A stretch of 32,966 bases of DNA from a virus: positions 1 to 32,966 of IMG/VR virus record IMGVR_UViG_3300046170_000087; one strand, 5' to 3'. Positions within the stretch are counted from its first letter, which is position 1. Each line of letters starts with the position of its first letter. Shown piece after piece: positions 57-32,966 of this stretch. The notes under the pieces were generated by a model. That model was not told the origin of the DNA and did not search any database. It saw nothing but the letters and a program-made list of their open reading frames with translations. The position numbers and the translations under genes are program-made.

Positions 57-236
57 ATGCAATTAACAAAAGAGCAATTTAAATCTATCAGAACAGAACT
101 CCAATACACTCAAAAAGAGTTCGCAGAAATGTTAGGAATAACTATTAGAATGATAACGTACTGCGAGTCTGGACAGAGACCAGTTGGAAAGACTGTTTCA
201 ATACTAGCAAAACGTATTTATCAAGACGAGAAATGA
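57..236 (+). CDS. Small XRE/Cro-type helix-turn-helix protein (59 aa)
   Basis: This 59-residue protein is almost only a helix-turn-helix domain. Residues about 17-45 read TQKEFAEMLGITIRMITYCE, the usual XRE pattern with the recognition helix at ITIRMITYCESG. It starts at ATG 57, preceded by AAGGAG at 43-48, a good ribosome-binding site. The upstream sequence CCTAGCAAAGG (31-41) resembles the leader of the small genes at 31.4-32.3 kb, so across the circular junction it looks like the last member of that early series. A 27-bp palindrome lies 20 bp downstream and may be its operator (inference). It is a likely DNA-binding regulator; the target is unknown. Confidence 0.85.
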   Translation: MQLTKEQFKSIRTELQYTQKEFAEMLGITIRMITYCESGQRPVGKTVSILAKRIYQDEK

Positions 237-437: not shown

Positions 438-686
438 TCAAGAAAATAATTTATCTTGGATATGTTTACTCACATAGCCATGCACAAAACGAGTAACGTC
501 TCTCATTCTTTGTTCAGCCGGTTCAAGCTCATTATAGTAAGACCAGTAAGCATCAAGAGTAACTTCAGCCATATGATCGTTGCTATTGCCAAGTACCTTA
601 AGAGAAAGAACCAGCTCTTTAAATCTTTCTTTTGTCTTGCACTTCTTCGCATACTTTCTAATTAAATTAATATTATTTCTTGGCAT
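438..686 (-). CDS. Unknown small phage protein (82 aa)
   Basis: I do not recognise this protein. It has a lysine-rich N-terminus (IRKYAKKCKTKERFKELV) followed by a mixed helical-looking body and no membrane segment. The start at 686 (MPRNNINL) is preferred over 704 because it overlaps the end of the preceding gene by 14 nt, like the other joints in this operon. It is the last gene of the leftward operon that begins with the repressor at 1554. Confidence 0.6.
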   Translation of the reverse strand: MPRNNINLIRKYAKKCKTKERFKELVLSLKVLGNSNDHMAEVTLDAYWSYYNELEPAEQRMRDVTRFVHGYVSKHIQDKLFS

Positions 687-939
687 CAGCACACTCATAA
701 CCAACTAGGGCATAACCTAGAATATCTTGCCATGAGTCATCATGGTCAGGTGTTTCTATTAATCTAGCAATCTTAACAGCTACCATACAAAGAGCCACTT
801 GCTCAGTTGTTACATACTTATCCAATATCACAGACCACATTTTAGCAATACGAGTATGATTATCTACGATAGAGCCGTAGCTTTCTCCACGTTCTTGTAT
901 AACTTCAGCAGTCTTTTGTAATAAATCAAACTTATCCAT
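673..939 (-). CDS. DUF6378-like phage protein
   Basis: The 88-residue protein carries the pattern I associate with the phage family DUF6378: ERGESYGSIVDNH near residues 17-29, then QVALCMVAVKIARL and ETPDHDDSWQDILGYA towards the end. The repeated acidic and histidine residues in a helical protein suggest a metal-dependent or nucleotide-handling fold, but no function is established that I know of. It overlaps the resolvase gene upstream by 8 nt and the next gene by 14 nt, so it belongs to the repressor operon. Confidence 0.75.
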   Translation of the reverse strand: MDKFDLLQKTAEVIQERGESYGSIVDNHTRIAKMWSVILDKYVTTEQVALCMVAVKIARLIETPDHDDSWQDILGYALVGYECADAKK

Positions 940-1810: not shown

Positions 1811-2827
1811 ATGAATGTATTTAGCTGTTTTGATGGTGCAAGTTGTGGGCAGTTAGCCTTAAAAAAACTTGGAATCCCTATAACAAATTATTATGCAAGT
1901 GAGATAGATAAGTATGCTATCCAAGTAACACAAGCTAACTTTCCTAACACAATACAATTAGGAGACATAACAACAGTTAATCCTGGTCAGCTACCTAAAA
2001 TAGATTTGATGATGGGAGGTAGTCCTTGTCAGGGATTTTCGTTTGCGGGAAAACAACTTAACTTTGATGACCCTAGATCTAAATTGTTTTTTGACTTCAT
2101 AAAACTAAGAGACAAGCTAAAACCTAAATATGTTTTGTTAGAAAATGTAAGAATGAAAAAAGAATCAGAGGATATCATATCTGATTACATGGGTTGTAAG
2201 CCTATTAAAATAAATTCAGCGTTACTTTCTGCACAAAGTAGAAATAGGCTGTATTGGTTTGTTAAACTCGTTGGGGATAAATATATACCAGTATTAACTT
2301 TTCAACCACATGACAAGGGTATAGTTATTAAAGATATTCTTGAAGAATTGCCTTTTGGAACTATACCAAATTATCTTGCTAATAGTTGGGGAGGAGAGCC
2401 TAGAGGAAACAAAGTTAAATCAATAGACGATTCCAAAGCTAACTGCCTTACTGCATCTATGTATAAAGGTCAGATACCAACCTATGTAAAAAAATTAATT
2501 CCAAAAGAGAATCCTACACTATCTAAAGATGGTCTTATTAGAGTTGGAAGTGCTGATTTGAAAGGACATGACAGTATCAAAAGAGTATACTCAAGAGATG
2601 GGAAAGCTCCAACATTAACAACAATGCAAGGTGGTCACAGAGAACCAAAGGTGGCTTTATCTGGTTATGCTTGGCGAAAGCTAACACCACTTGAGTGTGA
2701 ACGCCTACAAACAATGCCTGACAACTACACTAATCATGTATCCAATACGCAGCGATACAAGATGATAGGCAATGGCTGGACAGTAGATGTCATAGCTCAC
2801 ATATTGAAAGGGATACAACATGGCTGA
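1811..2827 (+). CDS. DNA (cytosine-5-)-methyltransferase
   Basis: This 338-residue enzyme has the motifs of C5 methyltransferases in order: SAM-binding FSCFDGASCGQ (4-14), GGSPCQGFSFAG with catalytic Cys73 (motif IV), LLENV with Glu111 (motif VI), QSRNRLYW (142-149, motif VIII), then RKLTPLECERLQTMP (motif IX) and YKMIGNGWTVDV (motif X). The whole arrangement is intact. The variable region at about 180-270 would hold the target-recognition domain; the target cannot be read from sequence. No restriction endonuclease is encoded nearby, so it is an orphan that probably protects the phage DNA from host restriction or alters gene control. It overlaps the next gene by 8 nt. Confidence 0.93.
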   Translation: MNVFSCFDGASCGQLALKKLGIPITNYYASEIDKYAIQVTQANFPNTIQLGDITTVNPGQLPKIDLMMGGSPCQGFSFAGKQLNFDDPRSKLFFDFIKLRDKLKPKYVLLENVRMKKESEDIISDYMGCKPIKINSALLSAQSRNRLYWFVKLVGDKYIPVLTFQPHDKGIVIKDILEELPFGTIPNYLANSWGGEPRGNKVKSIDDSKANCLTASMYKGQIPTYVKKLIPKENPTLSKDGLIRVGSADLKGHDSIKRVYSRDGKAPTLTTMQGGHREPKVALSGYAWRKLTPLECERLQTMPDNYTNHVSNTQRYKMIGNGWTVDVIAHILKGIQHG

Positions 2828-28708: not shown

Positions 28709-29991
28709 AGCGTAAAAGGATTGTACTCATTAACAGCCACCGATTGTGGTGCTCTTGTCATCACAGTACGATTCTCCAACCCAACAGATAAGTATCTAAA
28801 CGCATCAGCAGCGTGACTTGTAAAGTCATGCCTAGGCTGATCTCGGAATAACTTTTTCTTTTCATCCCATTCCTGCCTATACTGTCTTAACATTTCCAAC
28901 CCTTCAGCACATTTGTCTCTATCAAAGTAGCATTTAGGTATCATCATTCTAGCAGCGTTGATTCCGTCAGCTATTTTCATTCGAGGTATCACCTTAAATC
29001 GTATCCCCAAGCTAAAAGCTGTCTCTAATCTCGATTTCCCACTACCCAGTTCTCGAACTTCAATATCATGTGGAGCAAGATGATCTCCCCAGTGATAATC
29101 TTTCTTTCGCAATACTTCAGCGTAATGGTCCAAGCCAACGCCACTATTCTCATAATAGTCAATAACATTAACAGCACCCCCTCTATAGATCTGTGCAAAC
29201 CAAATAGCCGTTGAATCATTAATTCCTAAGTCCCAAGCTGTATGAACTGGCAACGCAGGATCGTATGGAACCCTGGTAATCTTGCCATTGTCATCAGCAT
29301 CAGCTAATAGTTTCCCATAATACGCACCAATAATAGCAGCCGTAAACGAACACTCATACTCTTGCTCATACTGCTCTGGTGTCATTTGCAACTTAGCAGC
29401 TTCTAGCTCGACATCTTTTACAAGTTTCGTTTCACTAGCTTTGGCAATCTTCCAGTACCACTGGTCAGAACCTTCTTCACTCTGCTCTTTAGCCGATTGA
29501 AGTATATCAAAAAAATGATTATGCCCAGCAGGTGTTCCCAAAAAGATGGCACTACCCTCTCTATCGGATAGGGCTGGTCTTACAACCTCCCCCCATACCC
29601 TAGGATTCTGCATCCCATACTCATCAAAGACACACAAGTCTAAGTATATACCTCTCAAAGCATCAGGATTTTCACCTGATAATAACATAATCCGACCATT
29701 GTTAGGAAAGTCAGCCCTCAGCTCAGTCTCATTAAAAGTAACACCAGGTATCACTCCAGCATAATACTTCACATAATCCCAGCTTATCCTCTTAGCTTGC
29801 GTAAACGTAGGAGCAACTAACGCAACTCTTGGTCTTGGTAACTCACAAGTAAGCACATGTTTAATCATATGATTGACAGCAAATACAGTTTTACCAAAGC
29901 GTCTGTGCATAACCAGCACATTCCACCTTTTCAAGTTCTTGTGCATCTCAGCCTGTAAGTCTCTAGGCTTGTATGGTATCTTAACTTGCAT
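28705..29991 (-). CDS. Terminase large subunit
   Basis: The 428-residue protein has the ATPase motifs MHRRFGKT (Walker A, 28-35) and LCVFDEYG (Walker B, Asp123-Glu124), then LGTPAGHNHF. The nuclease domain shows TAWDLGINDST (Asp254), and HAADAFRY near the end supplies the final acid. Length and pattern fit the Sf6/P22-like type and not the 586-residue T7 gp19. That type usually packages by headful and gives circularly permuted DNA. It overlaps the small terminase gene by 11 nt. Confidence 0.92.
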   Translation of the reverse strand: MQVKIPYKPRDLQAEMHKNLKRWNVLVMHRRFGKTVFAVNHMIKHVLTCELPRPRVALVAPTFTQAKRISWDYVKYYAGVIPGVTFNETELRADFPNNGRIMLLSGENPDALRGIYLDLCVFDEYGMQNPRVWGEVVRPALSDREGSAIFLGTPAGHNHFFDILQSAKEQSEEGSDQWYWKIAKASETKLVKDVELEAAKLQMTPEQYEQEYECSFTAAIIGAYYGKLLADADDNGKITRVPYDPALPVHTAWDLGINDSTAIWFAQIYRGGAVNVIDYYENSGVGLDHYAEVLRKKDYHWGDHLAPHDIEVRELGSGKSRLETAFSLGIRFKVIPRMKIADGINAARMMIPKCYFDRDKCAEGLEMLRQYRQEWDEKKKLFRDQPRHDFTSHAADAFRYLSVGLENRTVMTRAPQSVAVNEYNPFTL

Positions 29992-30370
29992 CCTCTGAAC
30001 CAGTCTCCCAAACTATCTTCAATGAACCATCACTGATCTCAACGCCTGTTCTGTTCTTAGCTTCGCCAAATCTCTCTGGTAATATCTTCTGCACCTTCCA
30101 ACGTACATGATGCCCATAGTCTCTCAATAGATTAGGATCGTAACTCTTACGACCATGTAACGCATCTCCGTACATATCCTCTAGCTCTTCTAGTGCTTTC
30201 TCAGCAGCCTGTCTCTGTGCAGTCTTAATATTGTTGTCTAGGTCAGCATCTTTGCTCATATGGCGATATAACGTAGCACGGCTAACCTTTGCATCTTGAC
30301 AAGCCTTTACTAGGCTGTGTCCGTCTGTAATGGATGCTATGATGTGCTCTTGTTTTGCTTTGCTTATCAT
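29981..30370 (-). CDS. Terminase small subunit
   Basis: The protein (129 aa from ATG 30370) has an N-terminal helix-turn-helix (SLVKACQDAKVSRATLYRHM) and a helical oligomerisation part (AAEKALEELEDMYG). This is the form of small terminases that pick the packaging site. A GTG at 30412 could extend it by 14 residues, but ATG fits the domain border. It is the first gene of the leftward late operon; there is no clear ribosome-binding site. Confidence 0.8.
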   Translation of the reverse strand: MISKAKQEHIIASITDGHSLVKACQDAKVSRATLYRHMSKDADLDNNIKTAQRQAAEKALEELEDMYGDALHGRKSYDPNLLRDYGHHVRWKVQKILPERFGEAKNRTGVEISDGSLKIVWETGSEDAS

Positions 30371-30746
30371 GTGTGTGTGAATGTACCTATTAATTGATAT
30401 ATATGGTGGCACGCCTGGCTGGGGTGGATACCTTAATTATTATACCCCCCATGCCTTGCCAAACTGCATACATTTTTATTATTGCTTTTCTTGTTTTGAA
30501 TTTCATGTTTCATTCTTTGCCGTGTAGAACTGTATCATTCAATATTTATTCTGCGTGTATCTCTCCCTAATATGCTAACAAATAAACTATTATTCACAGC
30601 TAATCAATATTATTTTTTACTTGCTATATATAGCCTTTGCACCAGCTGGAAAAACAATAATAATTTTTTTTGCATTTAGTACTTGACTAATGGAACATAG
30701 TTCCTATATATAATAAGACAACGACAAACAAAGCAAAGGTTAAAAC
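30371..30746. promoter_or_regulatory. Divergent control region between late and small-gene operons
   Basis: No gene is seen in this 376-bp gap. On the minus strand a TATAAT lies at 30444-30439 facing the small terminase gene, but with no good -35 box. On the plus strand TTGACT (30683-30688) is followed by TATATA at 30705 or 30707 (16- or 18-nt spacing) and TATAAT at 30709. Between these boxes is the palindrome GGAAC-ATA-GTTCC (30692-30704), a likely operator. A C-run (CCCCCC at 30445-30450) is striking in such AT-rich DNA. A packaging site or an origin could also lie here, but nothing marks one. Confidence 0.5.
30683..30714 (+). promoter_or_regulatory. Rightward promoter with an operator between -35 and -10
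   Basis: TTGACT at 30683 and the overlapping TATATA/TATAAT boxes at 30705-30714 form a sigma-70-like promoter for the small-gene series that starts at 30747. The 13-bp palindrome at 30692-30704 fills the spacer, the place where a bound protein blocks RNA polymerase. The spacing does not fit a LexA box. Confidence 0.55.
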
Positions 30747-30950
30747 ATGACAATCAAAACAATGATAAACAAATCTAAATATGTTTATGGGTACGTTTCA
30801 ACAAGTGAACATGATGGAATGTACTTAAGATTAAACAAGGCTGATGTTCTTGCAATGTATAATAATAAATACTCAAGAGAACAGATGGACATTAATAACT
30901 TTGATCTAAGACAAGACAATCAAGGTAATACAAATCTTTACATTAACTAA
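30747..30950 (+). CDS. Unknown small early protein (67 aa)
   Basis: This is the first gene of the small-gene series. It is basic at the front (MTIKTMINKSKYVYGYVST) and polar and asparagine-rich after that (NNKYSREQMDINNFDLR). No family is recognised. The leader AAGCAAAGG lies upstream. The position after a strong, possibly repressed promoter suggests an early role against the host. Confidence 0.6.
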   Translation: MTIKTMINKSKYVYGYVSTSEHDGMYLRLNKADVLAMYNNKYSREQMDINNFDLRQDNQGNTNLYIN

Positions 30951-30972
30951 ACCAAGCAAAGGAGCAAAGACA

Positions 30973-31251
30973 ATGATAGTTAGAAACATGACAAGTAACA
31001 AAGGCAATAAGATTGCTAACCAGTTCATTATAACAGACGATTATGAAAATACTTATTTTAAATCGTACGATTCAATAATTGTCAAAATAGGTAATAAGAC
31101 TATGGGAACTAATCCGATTTATTTAGATAAAACATTTTGGGATTATTCTGTAACTACCGGTAAATACAGAAACATATTCTTGAATGAAACCAAAAAAGAA
31201 ACAGAAAAGAAAATCAAGAATGGAACTTACATTCTAACAAATCTTAATTAA
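30973..31251 (+). CDS. Unknown small early protein (92 aa)
   Basis: It is a compact protein with alternating strands (NQFIITDDYENTYFKSYDS, IIVKIGNKTMG, FWDYSVTTGKY), rich in lysine and aromatic residues. No family is recognised. The 22-nt leader AACCAAGCAAAGGAGC before it is a variant of the repeated leader of this series. Confidence 0.6.
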   Translation: MIVRNMTSNKGNKIANQFIITDDYENTYFKSYDSIIVKIGNKTMGTNPIYLDKTFWDYSVTTGKYRNIFLNETKKETEKKIKNGTYILTNLN

Positions 31252-31267
31252 AAGAAAGGGAGCTAAA

Positions 31268-31399
31268 ATGGGATATCAAGACAAAAAATCTGAATGTGTT
31301 GGATGCGATGCAAAAACAGAAGGCACAATTAGGGAAGAGTTTAATTGGCATCTATGCGATGAATGTTACGAACAAGCTTTAGAACAAGAAACAGATTAA
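31268..31399 (+). CDS. Small zinc-finger protein (43 aa)
   Basis: The 43-residue protein has CVGCDAKTEG and HLCDECYEQ, a CxxC...CxxC zinc knuckle, in an acidic chain ending EQETD. AAAGGGAG lies 6-13 nt before ATG 31268. Short Zn-ribbon proteins in phage early regions can bind host RNA polymerase or other targets; here the role is unknown. It is below common length limits for gene finding. Confidence 0.6.
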   Translation: MGYQDKKSECVGCDAKTEGTIREEFNWHLCDECYEQALEQETD

Positions 31400-31411
31400 C
31401 TTATATCACTT

Positions 31412-31438
31412 ATAAACTAGGATCTATTCCTAGTTTAT
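31412..31438 (+). other. Intergenic RNA hairpin (11-bp stem)
   Basis: ATAAACTAGGA (31412-31422) and TCCTAGTTTAT (31428-31438) form a perfect stem with a 5-nt loop, extendable by three more pairs including one G-U. A second weaker stem (GAGCT...AGCTC, 31441-31457) follows. It lacks a U-run, so it is more like a processing or mRNA-stabilising element than a terminator. The next gene's leader begins just after it. Confidence 0.55.
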
Positions 31439-31487
31439 GAGAGCTATAAGAAAGCTCATAACCTAGCAACTAAGAAAGGAACTAAAC

Positions 31488-31793
31488 ATGAAACAATCAA
31501 CAGTTAAATTTGCATGGAATGATAATTATAATATGAACTGTGATATTGATGAGCTTAAGAAATTAGGCTTTATTAATTCATCATATCATAATGATCTAGC
31601 ACCATCTTACACAAATAAAAAAGGCAATATACAAGTTTTCTTTTTTGACCTTGAAGATGAAAGCATAAAGCAAGAAGACATAAAGCATAAATACTCAATA
31701 ATGAAGTTAGATGATAACGGAGAGTATTTAGAAGACGTTGGAATTACTAACTCATTCAATGAAATGGTTAGCTTAGTTAAATCAGCAGAATAA
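31488..31793 (+). CDS. Unknown small early protein (101 aa)
   Basis: The protein is acidic (ELKKLGFINSSYHND, FDLEDESIKQEDIKHK) with an alpha/beta pattern and no membrane segment. It is not recognised. CCTAGCAA...GAAAGG (31462-31479) precedes ATG 31488. Confidence 0.6.
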   Translation: MKQSTVKFAWNDNYNMNCDIDELKKLGFINSSYHNDLAPSYTNKKGNIQVFFFDLEDESIKQEDIKHKYSIMKLDDNGEYLEDVGITNSFNEMVSLVKSAE

Positions 31794-31805
31794 GGAGAAT
31801 AAACA

Positions 31806-31949
31806 ATGAATGATAAAAAACTATTATGGCAACTGTTTAAGGATATGACAGACAAAGAAATATCCAAATATAACAAGGATCATAAACTTTATGGTAGCAA
31901 CAAACTAACAAGACAACAGATTAATAATTGGAGTTCTGAAGATGACTAA
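31806..31949 (+). CDS. Unknown small early protein (47 aa)
   Basis: A 47-residue, hydrophilic protein (LLWQLFKDMTDKEISKYN, RQQINNWSSEDD). AAGGAG lies before ATG 31806. The end overlaps the next start by 8 nt (31942). No family is recognised. Confidence 0.55.
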   Translation: MNDKKLLWQLFKDMTDKEISKYNKDHKLYGSNKLTRQQINNWSSEDD

Positions 31950-32079
31950 GAAACAAATAGCAGAATATCTTATATTATTCGTACTAGGTTTAATAATAAC
32001 TATAGGTTTTGTTAATCCAGTATCTAAAGAATACACTTGGTGGAATTTAATATATCAATCAAAAGATTTAACCCAGTAA
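31942..32079 (+). CDS. Small single-pass membrane protein (45 aa)
   Basis: The protein has one strong hydrophobic segment near the N-terminus (YLILFVLGLIITIGFV) after MTKKQIAE, followed by a short polar tail. The start overlaps the preceding gene by 8 nt. Such single-pass peptides in early regions can act on the host membrane or on superinfecting phages; the role here is unknown. Confidence 0.6.
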   Translation: MTKKQIAEYLILFVLGLIITIGFVNPVSKEYTWWNLIYQSKDLTQ

Positions 32080-32090
32080 ACAAAAAGAAT

Positions 32091-32159
32091 TGTAAAGGCT
32101 AGTTTTGTACTAGTCTTTACATAACAGAGCCACACGGCTCTTAAAAAGCCACTAATGGC
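32091..32159 (+). other. Run of three RNA hairpins between small genes
   Basis: The first stem pairs TGTAAAGGCTAGT (32091-32103) with ACTAGTCTTTACA (32109-32121): 13 pairs, one G-U, loop TTTGT. The second pairs AGAGCC with GGCTCT (32126-32141, loop ACAC). The third is GCCA-CTAA-TGGC (32148-32159). They fill the gap between stop 32079 and the leader at 32163. The dense structure without a U-run suggests RNA processing or an mRNA-protecting element. Confidence 0.6.
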
Positions 32160-32162
32160 ATA

Positions 32163-32179
32163 ACTAGCAAAGAGAAAGG
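32163..32179 (+). repeat. Repeated gene leader (copy 1)
   Basis: ACTAGCAAAGAGAAAGG is followed 7 nt later by ACATG-type start context (ATG 32187). A copy with one extra A is at 32305-32322, and shorter variants are at 31-41, 31462-31479, 30730-30739 and 30953-30962. The GAAAGG end probably acts as ribosome-binding site; conservation further upstream is more than that needs. Confidence 0.6.
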
Positions 32180-32186
32180 TCTTAAC

Positions 32187-32300
32187 ATGACTAGCGAAGA
32201 GTATAAAAAAATAATTAGTTTTATATTGAATGATCTTGATACAAGAGATCAGCTTAAATTAATTGCACTAATAAAAGAGAAATTAGAACAAAACAACTAA
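32187..32300 (+). CDS. Unknown small early protein (37 aa)
   Basis: The 37-residue protein (MTSEEYKKIISFILNDLD, LKLIALIKEKLEQN) is two predicted amphipathic helices. It is supported by the repeated leader before it and by its place in the series. No family is recognised. Confidence 0.5.
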   Translation: MTSEEYKKIISFILNDLDTRDQLKLIALIKEKLEQNN

Positions 32301-32304
32301 ACAA

Positions 32305-32322
32305 ACTAGCAAAAGAGAAAGG
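32305..32322 (+). repeat. Repeated gene leader (copy 2)
   Basis: ACTAGCAAAAGAGAAAGG is the same as the copy at 32163 except for one inserted A, and is placed the same distance (7 nt) from the next ATG (32330). It is the best-matched pair of the leader family. Confidence 0.6.
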
Positions 32323-32329
32323 CTGTAAC

Positions 32330-32557
32330 ATGAAAGTAAAATTATATTCTACTGACTATGTAATAGTGGATTCACAAACAAAAAAGCCACTAGAAGGTTA
32401 TGAATCTATCTATCATTACACTTCTGTAATTGAGATGCTAAATGAAAAGCTAATCAATGAAGGCTATGAATATATATCTATTACAGAGCTACCCAAAGAA
32501 GAGAAAGAACAATACAAACAAACAATAATGGAAACTGAGGAGTTTTATAATGACTAA
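32330..32557 (+). CDS. Unknown small early protein (75 aa)
   Basis: The protein starts with strands (KVKLYSTDYVIVDSQTKKP), followed by a helix (YTSVIEMLNEKLINEG) and an acidic tail (EEKEQYKQTIMETEEFYND). The composition resembles small phage inhibitors, but no family is recognised. It overlaps the next gene by 8 nt. Confidence 0.6.
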   Translation: MKVKLYSTDYVIVDSQTKKPLEGYESIYHYTSVIEMLNEKLINEGYEYISITELPKEEKEQYKQTIMETEEFYND

Positions 32558-32780
32558 AAAAACAGATTGGGAAAGACTAGCAGAGAAAGAGCAAGCTGAA
32601 AGAGAAAAGGCTTTATCTTCTCTAACTGCAGAACAATTAAAGACAATCAAAAAGGCACATGAAACGATAGGGTCTTGTTTGGATATGATAACAGAATGTC
32701 ATGATCTATATATGTCAGACATAAGCAAGCTCAATAGCGTTTATTGGGCTATTAAACATCAATTTAACTTGGAGGAATAG
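32550..32780 (+). CDS. Unknown small helical protein (76 aa)
   Basis: A charged coiled-coil-like N-terminal half (DWERLAEKEQAEREKALSSL) and a helical C-terminal half with two cysteines (IGSCLDMITECHDLYM). It is not recognised. It overlaps the preceding gene and is followed directly by the next. Confidence 0.6.
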   Translation: MTKKTDWERLAEKEQAEREKALSSLTAEQLKTIKKAHETIGSCLDMITECHDLYMSDISKLNSVYWAIKHQFNLEE

Positions 32781-32782
32781 AC

Positions 32783-32953
32783 ATGGACAAGAAAACTATA
32801 GAAGACTGTATATCTTTTTTCCAATCAAAAGGAATAACTTGTAGAAACATAACAGAAGACGTTGTTGAAGTACTTGTTAGAACTTCATCAATGAGTACAG
32901 ATTGTTGGGTACAGATAAGTGAAGAAGAGATTTATTTTAGAGCCAACGACTAA
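32783..32953 (+). CDS. Unknown small early protein (56 aa)
   Basis: The 56-residue protein (KKTIEDCISFFQSKGITC, EDVVEVLVRTSS, CWVQISEEEIYFRAND) has an alpha-beta pattern. GGAGGAAT lies just before ATG 32783. It ends 13 nt before the window edge; after circular joining the closure hairpin and the HTH gene at 57 follow. Confidence 0.6.
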   Translation: MDKKTIEDCISFFQSKGITCRNITEDVVEVLVRTSSMSTDCWVQISEEEIYFRAND

Positions 32954-32966
32954 CAAAAAAAAGGGC

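What the first reader, a model, noticed from the sequence alone, without database searches (positions are those of the whole stretch)
30747..32953. Series of small orphan genes with a shared leader
Ten short rightward genes (37-101 aa), plus the HTH gene across the junction, mostly unrecognised, follow a promoter with a built-in palindrome. Several begin after TAGCAAA-(A)GAGAAAGG and 5-7 nt then ACATG. A conserved leader longer than a ribosome-binding site may be a binding site for a translational regulator, or a trace of cassette duplication and exchange. Such loci often hold anti-defence genes.
Basis: partly seen in the sequence, partly recalled or inferred. Interest (0 to 1): 0.6.

Follow-up and report, generated by a model that had tools for sequence, protein, structure and literature searches.

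The report
Structured RNA leaders between phage genes
In a family of uncultured marine phages, the small early genes are separated by strongly conserved RNA hairpins followed by a short shared start signal, which probably cut or protect the messenger RNA so that interchangeable genes can each be expressed.

Summary
The window is a circularly permuted, HTVC010P-like marine phage. In its early operon the GAGAAAGG part is an ordinary extended Shine-Dalgarno. It is also enriched in cultured SAR11 phages, whereas the TAGCAA upstream of it is not. In front of TAGCAA lie two covarying RNA modules. Leader A is a hairpin with 22-23-nt arms, a 2x2 internal loop and a hypervariable stem, starting 0-5 nt after the upstream stop codon. 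Leader B is three stem-loops. Covariation is strong: for A, 12 of 19 pairs change on both sides, and the score is 0.555 against at most 0.086 for slid controls. The mismatches are G.U rather than A.C (61:10 in A; 46:0 in the B stem), so the mRNA strand is what folds. Operons carry up to three A and at most one B, in front of 20 and 17 gene families. Rfam has no match. Best reading: intercistronic mRNA processing or stabilising modules of the T7 RNase III-site kind, coupled to a start-associated motif like SAS/ESAS of cluster K mycobacteriophages. Genes are exchanged throughout the operon, but no more at leaders than elsewhere. No gene tested here has a recognised anti-defence function.

The parts
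30683..30714 (+). Putative early promoter TTGACT ... TATAAT (20-nt spacer) with palindrome GGAACATAGTTCC at 30692-30704
   Evidence: sequence; not listed by the consensus scan; L149 has TTGACA with AGAACGTTGTTCT at the same place
30747..31399 (+). First three small genes (67, 92, 43 aa); the 92-aa protein matches phrog_21575, unknown function
   Evidence: families found in 5, 13 and 2 of 53 operons
31400..31450 (+). Leader A, hairpin P1: CTTAT, internal loop, long stem, starting directly after the stop codon of the 43-aa gene
   Evidence: (R2 E=2e-13)
31441..31457 (+). Leader A, alternative hairpin P2 GAGCT...AGCTC, overlapping the 3' arm of P1
   Evidence: GCTC present in 41 of 41 A hairpins; one compensatory GAGCG/CGCTC
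31464..31479 (+). TAGCAA plus AAGAAAGG Shine-Dalgarno of the 101-aa gene (start 31488)
31488..32079 (+). 101-, 47- and 45-aa genes
32091..32121 (+). Leader B, stem P1
   Evidence: (R1 E=5.6e-18)
32126..32159 (+). Leader B, stems P2 (32126-32141) and P3 (32148-32159)
32165..32179 (+). TAGCAAAGAGAAAGG, start signal of the 37-aa gene (start 32187)
32307..32322 (+). Bare leader TAGCAAAAGAGAAAGG of the 75-aa gene, no hairpin
32187..32953 (+). 37-, 75-, 76- and 56-aa genes
32957..32966 (+). A-run and first bases of the hairpin upstream of the HTH gene, split by the contig ends
1..39 (+). Rest of hairpin C (GGCGTTGC...GCAACGCC, loop with ACATGA) and TAGCAAA; read on the minus strand the hairpin ends in a T-run, so probably the terminator of the leftward operon
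57..236 (+). 59-aa HTH_3 (Cro/CI-type) regulator, last gene of the series
   Evidence: PF01381, 9.4e-7

Best explanation
Leaders A and B are cis-acting RNA modules that fill the spaces between cistrons of the early accessory-gene mRNA. Shown: each module folds on the mRNA strand, begins close after the upstream stop codon, and is followed by TAGCAA, an extended alphaproteobacterial-type Shine-Dalgarno and the start codon; the module keeps its place in the operon while the genes on either side are replaced. Inferred: the A hairpin, about two helical turns long with an internal loop, is cut by host RNase III (or a comparable enzyme) to divide the polycistronic transcript into mono- and dicistronic mRNAs. 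After the cut, the downstream piece keeps a short 5' stem (P2) that protects it and leaves TAGCAA plus the Shine-Dalgarno free for ribosomes. B would act as a further 5'/3' stabilising element. TAGCAA is a start-associated motif of unknown partner. The hairpin upstream of the HTH gene is a separate thing, a leftward terminator.
For: Covariation of A: 41 distinct hairpins, 94.7% of cells paired, 12 of 19 pairs changed on both sides, 146 such cells (shuffle mean 38.8), score 0.555 against at most 0.086 when slid. Arms of 22 or 23 nt in 41 of 41, loops of 4-7; hairpin starts 0-5 nt after the upstream stop in 40 of 40. Stem sequence is hypervariable at constant length, as expected of a double-strand-recognising enzyme. 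G.U against A.C cells 61:10 (A) and 46:0 (B stem P1): the mRNA strand folds. B: P1 99.6% paired, whole structure 0.240 against at most 0.128 slid. Several A in one operon, four loci with three, like multiple processing sites. [quoted passage not shown] An alphaproteobacterial RNase III cuts R1.1 (PMC6121014, passages). TAGCAA and the hairpin precede 20 (A) and 17 (B) downstream families.
Against: No transcript data and no cultured host. The S. meliloti enzyme prefers longer dsRNA than the E. coli one, and A has 5 + about 14-16 bp. B's stem is only 12-14 bp, short for RNase III. P2 hardly varies, so its covariation support is one or two lineages. A search threshold that counted G.U as a pair was used to collect A2, which favours G.U over A.C there (B P1 was not selected by pairing, apart from short TTGTA/TTACA sequence filters). 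Six named isolates lack both modules, so the modules are not needed by this phage type in general.
Confidence: 0.42

Rival explanations
1. Binding site for a phage or host translational regulator: a protein recognises the hairpin followed by AYAAC-UAGCAA and switches translation of the downstream genes.
For: AYAAC(C)TAGCAA follows the stem at nearly fixed distance in A, B and C; TAGCAA is not explained by ribosome pairing and is not a feature of cultured pelagiphage starts.
Against: The Shine-Dalgarno is largely unpaired in the folds; stem sequences are hypervariable; bare TAGCAA leaders without a hairpin are common; no candidate regulator was identified.
Confidence: 0.17
2. Transcription antitermination element (lambda nut-like or HK022 put-like): B carries GCUCUUAA (boxA-like) followed by a small stem-loop, and lets polymerase pass terminators.
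For: GCTCTTAA in 31 of 47 B leaders, followed by a 4-bp stem-loop; at most one B per scanned locus at E<=0.001. The nut comparison is from memory.
Against: 16 of 47 B leaders lack GCTCTTAA; B is absent from some operons and lies late in the operon, not near the promoter; A is repeated; no N-like protein seen.
Confidence: 0.13
3. Stability element only: hairpins at a 3' end or 5' end that block exonucleases, without programmed cutting.
For: A hairpins start directly after stop codons and both modules are very stable (mean -26 kcal/mol for A and -27 for B, z about -5.6 and -5.9).
Against: Does not explain the constant 22-23-nt arm length, the fixed internal loop or the conserved alternative stem P2.
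Confidence: 0.2
4. Recombination element: leaders are the sites at which gene cassettes are swapped (integron-attC-like or PeSL-like).
For: Very many gene families on both sides; three B leaders without a following gene (L137, L169, L188).
Against: Neighbour exchange no greater at leader junctions; the G.U bias points to mRNA, not DNA, as the folded form; no promoter in the leaders. No integrase among the window proteins scanned, but not all window proteins were scanned.
Confidence: 0.06
5. Nothing beyond ribosome binding: an extended Shine-Dalgarno.
For: AGAAAGG is a general start signal in cultured pelagiphages.
Against: TAGCAA and the covarying stems are not part of it.
Confidence: 0.02

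Closest known systems
[quoted passage not shown] PMC12699233, passages)
   Same: Short conserved motif overlapping the Shine-Dalgarno, repeated before many non-structural genes of unrelated families with larger-than-usual gaps; about half with an inverted repeat just upstream; function unproven
   Different: Other sequence (GGGATAGGAGCCC absent); ESAS repeats share a consensus within a genome, here the A stems are hypervariable and covary; here several classes, one starting at the stop codon
RNase III processing sites of T7 early mRNA (R1.1 and others; PMC4858673, passages)
   Same: Stem-loops between early genes, several per operon, internal loop, mono- and dicistronic units
   Different: No cleavage shown; different phage type and host; coupled to a start-associated motif; extra alternative stem P2
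Promoter-early stem-loops (PeSL) of T4-like phages (only passages in PMC4503421; original papers not read)
   Same: Stem-loops in a region of rapid exchange of small genes
   Different: No promoter in these leaders; no excess exchange at them
lambda nut and HK022 put antitermination sites (recalled, no call)
   Same: B has a boxA-like run and a small stem-loop
   Different: boxA-like run not conserved; late in the operon; A is repeated

Membership tests
SAS/ESAS of cluster K mycobacteriophages | 13-bp GGGATAGGAGCCC at start codons | tested here: not met
   0 matches with up to 2 mismatches
SAS/ESAS of cluster K mycobacteriophages | repeated before starts of genes of many families, outside the structural genes | tested here: met
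   20 and 17 downstream families; in the near-complete records strong A and B hits lie close together at one locus, in the early operon where it was read
SAS/ESAS of cluster K mycobacteriophages | inverted repeat of shared sequence upstream of a subset | tested here: inconclusive
   inverted repeat present; B stem partly shared in sequence, A stem hypervariable
T7-type RNase III site | stem-loop of about two helical turns between early cistrons | tested here: met
   A: arms 22-23 nt in 41 of 41; B stem is shorter
T7-type RNase III site | internal loop in the stem | tested here: met
   UA/CU-type 2x2 loop in A
T7-type RNase III site | cleavage by RNase III | not testable with these tools
   no RNA data
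PeSL of T4-like phages | early promoter in the element | tested here: not met
   no promoter-like site on the + strand inside leaders A or B
PeSL of T4-like phages | mediates shuffling | tested here: not met
   no excess exchange at leader junctions
lambda nut-like site | conserved boxA | tested here: not met
   GCTCTTAA in 31 of 47 B leaders
Known Rfam RNA family | match at gathering score | tested here: not met
   0 matches in window and six relatives; four chance-level hits at E up to 5
HTVC010P-like podophages | related terminase and capsid | tested here: met
   terminase 48-53% identical to HTVC010P-group phages; capsid region 72-75% identical DNA

The most novel reading that the evidence does not exclude
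Leader A is a two-state RNA that senses translation of the gene before it. The hairpin starts 0-5 nt after the stop codon, so a terminating ribosome would cover its first ten bases (lower stem, internal loop, CUC) and let GAGCU pair with the conserved AGCUC as P2. Translation of the upstream gene would thereby decide whether the full hairpin is available for cutting. A set of such switches, reused before 20 unrelated gene families, would be a general plug-in system that lets a phage install any small gene at fixed operon positions with its own expression control.
Probability: 0.14. Interest if true: 0.78.

Novelty: new variant of a known kind. Interest (0 to 1): 0.56.

Why it matters
Phage early regions are full of small, exchangeable genes with unknown roles, and how newly acquired ones get expressed is largely unknown. 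Here is a defined, strongly covarying RNA module, without a match in Rfam, that stays in place while genes around it change. It gives a direct handle: a profile to find these operons, a bench-ready RNA to test for RNase III cutting, and a comparison for the unexplained SAS/ESAS elements of mycobacteriophages.

Tried and rejected
Rejected: (1) Ribosome binding alone: TAGCAA is not a feature of isolate starts and the stems covary. (2) Leaders A and B as intrinsic terminators: no terminator-like site in 29900-32966 and no T-run after either hairpin. (3) Recombination hot spot: the neighbour-exchange test gave no excess. Gene calling there was crude: ATG starts with a Shine-Dalgarno, 30 aa or more, blastp clustering. 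(4) One common structure for B: tandem stems (score 0.240) and a nested alternative (0.204) both have support, in different lineages; unresolved. (5) The bare leader at 32307: no structure. In relatives the same bases often code the C-terminus LAKEKG of an upstream gene, seen by eye; not pursued. (6) Hosts: the exact A pattern has 0 hits in 84,980 species genomes; B was not scanned there. (7) Literature: searches listed no paper on these leaders in this or related phages; the library is open-access only. PMC2704228 has no occurrence of 'phage'; passages of PMC3014915 (T4 review) added nothing used here.

Limits of the counts: most loci were fetched by leader patterns or by early-operon proteins, so the 41 A and 47 B sites are not a random sample; some loci are pieces of the same or near-identical contigs (identical stretches counted once). 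Rows dropped: L093 from B (false hit), eight B rows without the usual P1 from alignment A3, L003 replaced in A3 by the window copy, L068, the window copy and A rows with long spacers from alignment A4. A regex count gave one 'BAB' operon, probably a false match; the covariance model found at most one B per scanned locus at E<=0.001.
Full report
WHAT THE WINDOW IS. The window is an IMG/VR virus record of 32,966 bases. Its capsid region is 72-75% identical in DNA, and its terminase 48-53% identical in protein, to SAR11 podophages of the HTVC010P group. The host is not known. The ten ORFs of the finding exist as described, and each has a homologue in at least one other of the 53 operons compared. 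The series ends in a 59-aa HTH_3 gene across the contig ends; relative L003 carries the joined stretch on one contig.

WHAT THE LEADER IS MADE OF. It splits into two parts. AGAAAGG is a normal start signal: it precedes 16 of 150 annotated starts in five cultured pelagiphages (shuffle mean 0.7), consistent with the extended 16S 3' end of alphaproteobacteria (established knowledge, not tested here). TAGCAA precedes 2 of 150 such starts (shuffle mean 1.25) and so is not a general pelagiphage start signal.

TWO COVARYING RNA MODULES. Upstream of TAGCAA the window has strong hairpins before the 101-aa gene (leader A) and the 37-aa gene (leader B), z about -5.4 each. Relatives were collected with DNA patterns and proteins. 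Among 1,189 TAGCAA sites, a structure-only search found 41 distinct A hairpins; all 41 are followed by a Shine-Dalgarno and start codon and all contain GCTC before TAGCAA, neither of which was required. On an alignment made without structure, 94.7% of cells pair, 12 of 19 pairs change on both sides, and the covariation score is 0.555 against at most 0.086 for slid partners. The arms are 22 or 23 nt in 41 of 41 although the stem sequence is hypervariable, and in 40 of 40 cases with an upstream ORF the hairpin starts 0-5 nt after the stop codon. For B, 39 sequences give a P1 stem paired in 99.6% of cells and an overall score of 0.240 (slid: at most 0.128); tandem stems P2 and P3 and a nested alternative are supported in different lineages. 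Departures from Watson-Crick pairing are G.U rather than A.C (61:10 in A, 46:0 in B P1), so the sense RNA, not DNA or antisense RNA, is what is kept folded. Rfam has no match.

DISTRIBUTION. Covariance models place strong A and B hits close together at one locus in each near-complete relative that carries both, in the early operon where it was read; none of six named isolates has a match better than E 0.5. Four of 70 loci carry three A copies (L149, L151, L154, L170; L149 and L170 look near-identical), B occurs at most once per locus, and wherever both occur A lies upstream of B (43 loci, hand count). L149 shows the order promoter, A, A, A, B, C, HTH. The exact A pattern is absent from 84,980 species genomes.

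GENES MOVE, LEADERS STAY. A precedes 20 and follows 12 gene families; B precedes 17 and follows 16. Three B leaders have no gene behind them. Yet exchange of neighbours is not more frequent at leader junctions (78) than at other junctions (161) of the same operons (p 0.21 and 0.98). So these are fixed positions in a fluid operon, not demonstrated exchange sites. No leader-associated gene tested has a recognised anti-defence function; two families match GP88.

THE HAIRPIN BEFORE THE HTH GENE is different. It has three stem versions with compensating changes and, on the minus strand, a T-run: in L149 it is called as a terminator; in L003 no terminator was called, because its longer loop exceeds the scanner's limit. 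It probably ends the leftward operon.

MECHANISM. [quoted passage not shown] A matches this plan: several stem-loops of about two helical turns with an internal loop between early cistrons, sequence free but length fixed. A cut would leave the conserved P2 stem at the new 5' end and the start signal open. This is inference; stabilisation without cutting, a regulator binding TAGCAA, and antitermination by B remain possible. P2 costs about 4 kcal/mol relative to the full hairpin, so it would need a cut or a ribosome on the lower stem to form; the stop codon sits where a terminating ribosome would do that, which is the bold reading.

COMPARISON. The nearest described elements are SAS/ESAS of cluster K mycobacteriophages, which are also start-associated motifs with inverted repeats before unrelated genes and of unproven function (PMC3203893, section 15 part 1; PMC12699233, passages). 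Their sequence is absent here, so this works like SAS/ESAS but is not a member. I rate it a new variant of a known kind.

Noticed in passing
window 438-704 (-) and L003 7040-8127: L003 carries a 280-aa ORF, similar by eye to the PAPS-reductase-type gene of HTVC034P, where the window has a shorter fused frame (MVMSVLMPRNN-INLIRKY), i.e. a clean gain or loss of one gene.
   Followed up: no
window 30692-30704; L149 about 1000-1025; other loci: The palindrome between -35 and -10 of the early promoter is present in relatives but with different sequence (GGAACATAGTTCC, AGAACGTTGTTCT, TGCACACAGTGCA), suggesting operators that differ between phages.
   Followed up: partly
window about 1590-1625: Divergent promoter region upstream of the 91-aa HTH gene with TTGACAATCTGTCAA and a second TTGACA, possibly its operator.
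   Followed up: no
L137 4813, L169 4339, L188 (- strand) 2276: Leader B present without any gene after it, running straight into the hairpin before the HTH gene: probable gene-deletion scars.
   Followed up: partly
window 32307-32322; L010, L053, L068 equivalents: TAGCAAAAGAGAAAGG is noncoding in the window but encodes the C-terminal LAKEKG of upstream genes in several relatives.
   Followed up: partly
L020, L030, L032, L036, L042, L043, L069: A second, more distant phage group has many TAGCAAA-type leaders (about six per early region) and a weak B-like element (R1 E about 1e-4 in the records of L020, L036 and L042; 0.04 in that of L069).
   Followed up: partly
window 1811-2827 (+): C-5 cytosine DNA methylase (PF00145, 9.7e-49).
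   Followed up: no
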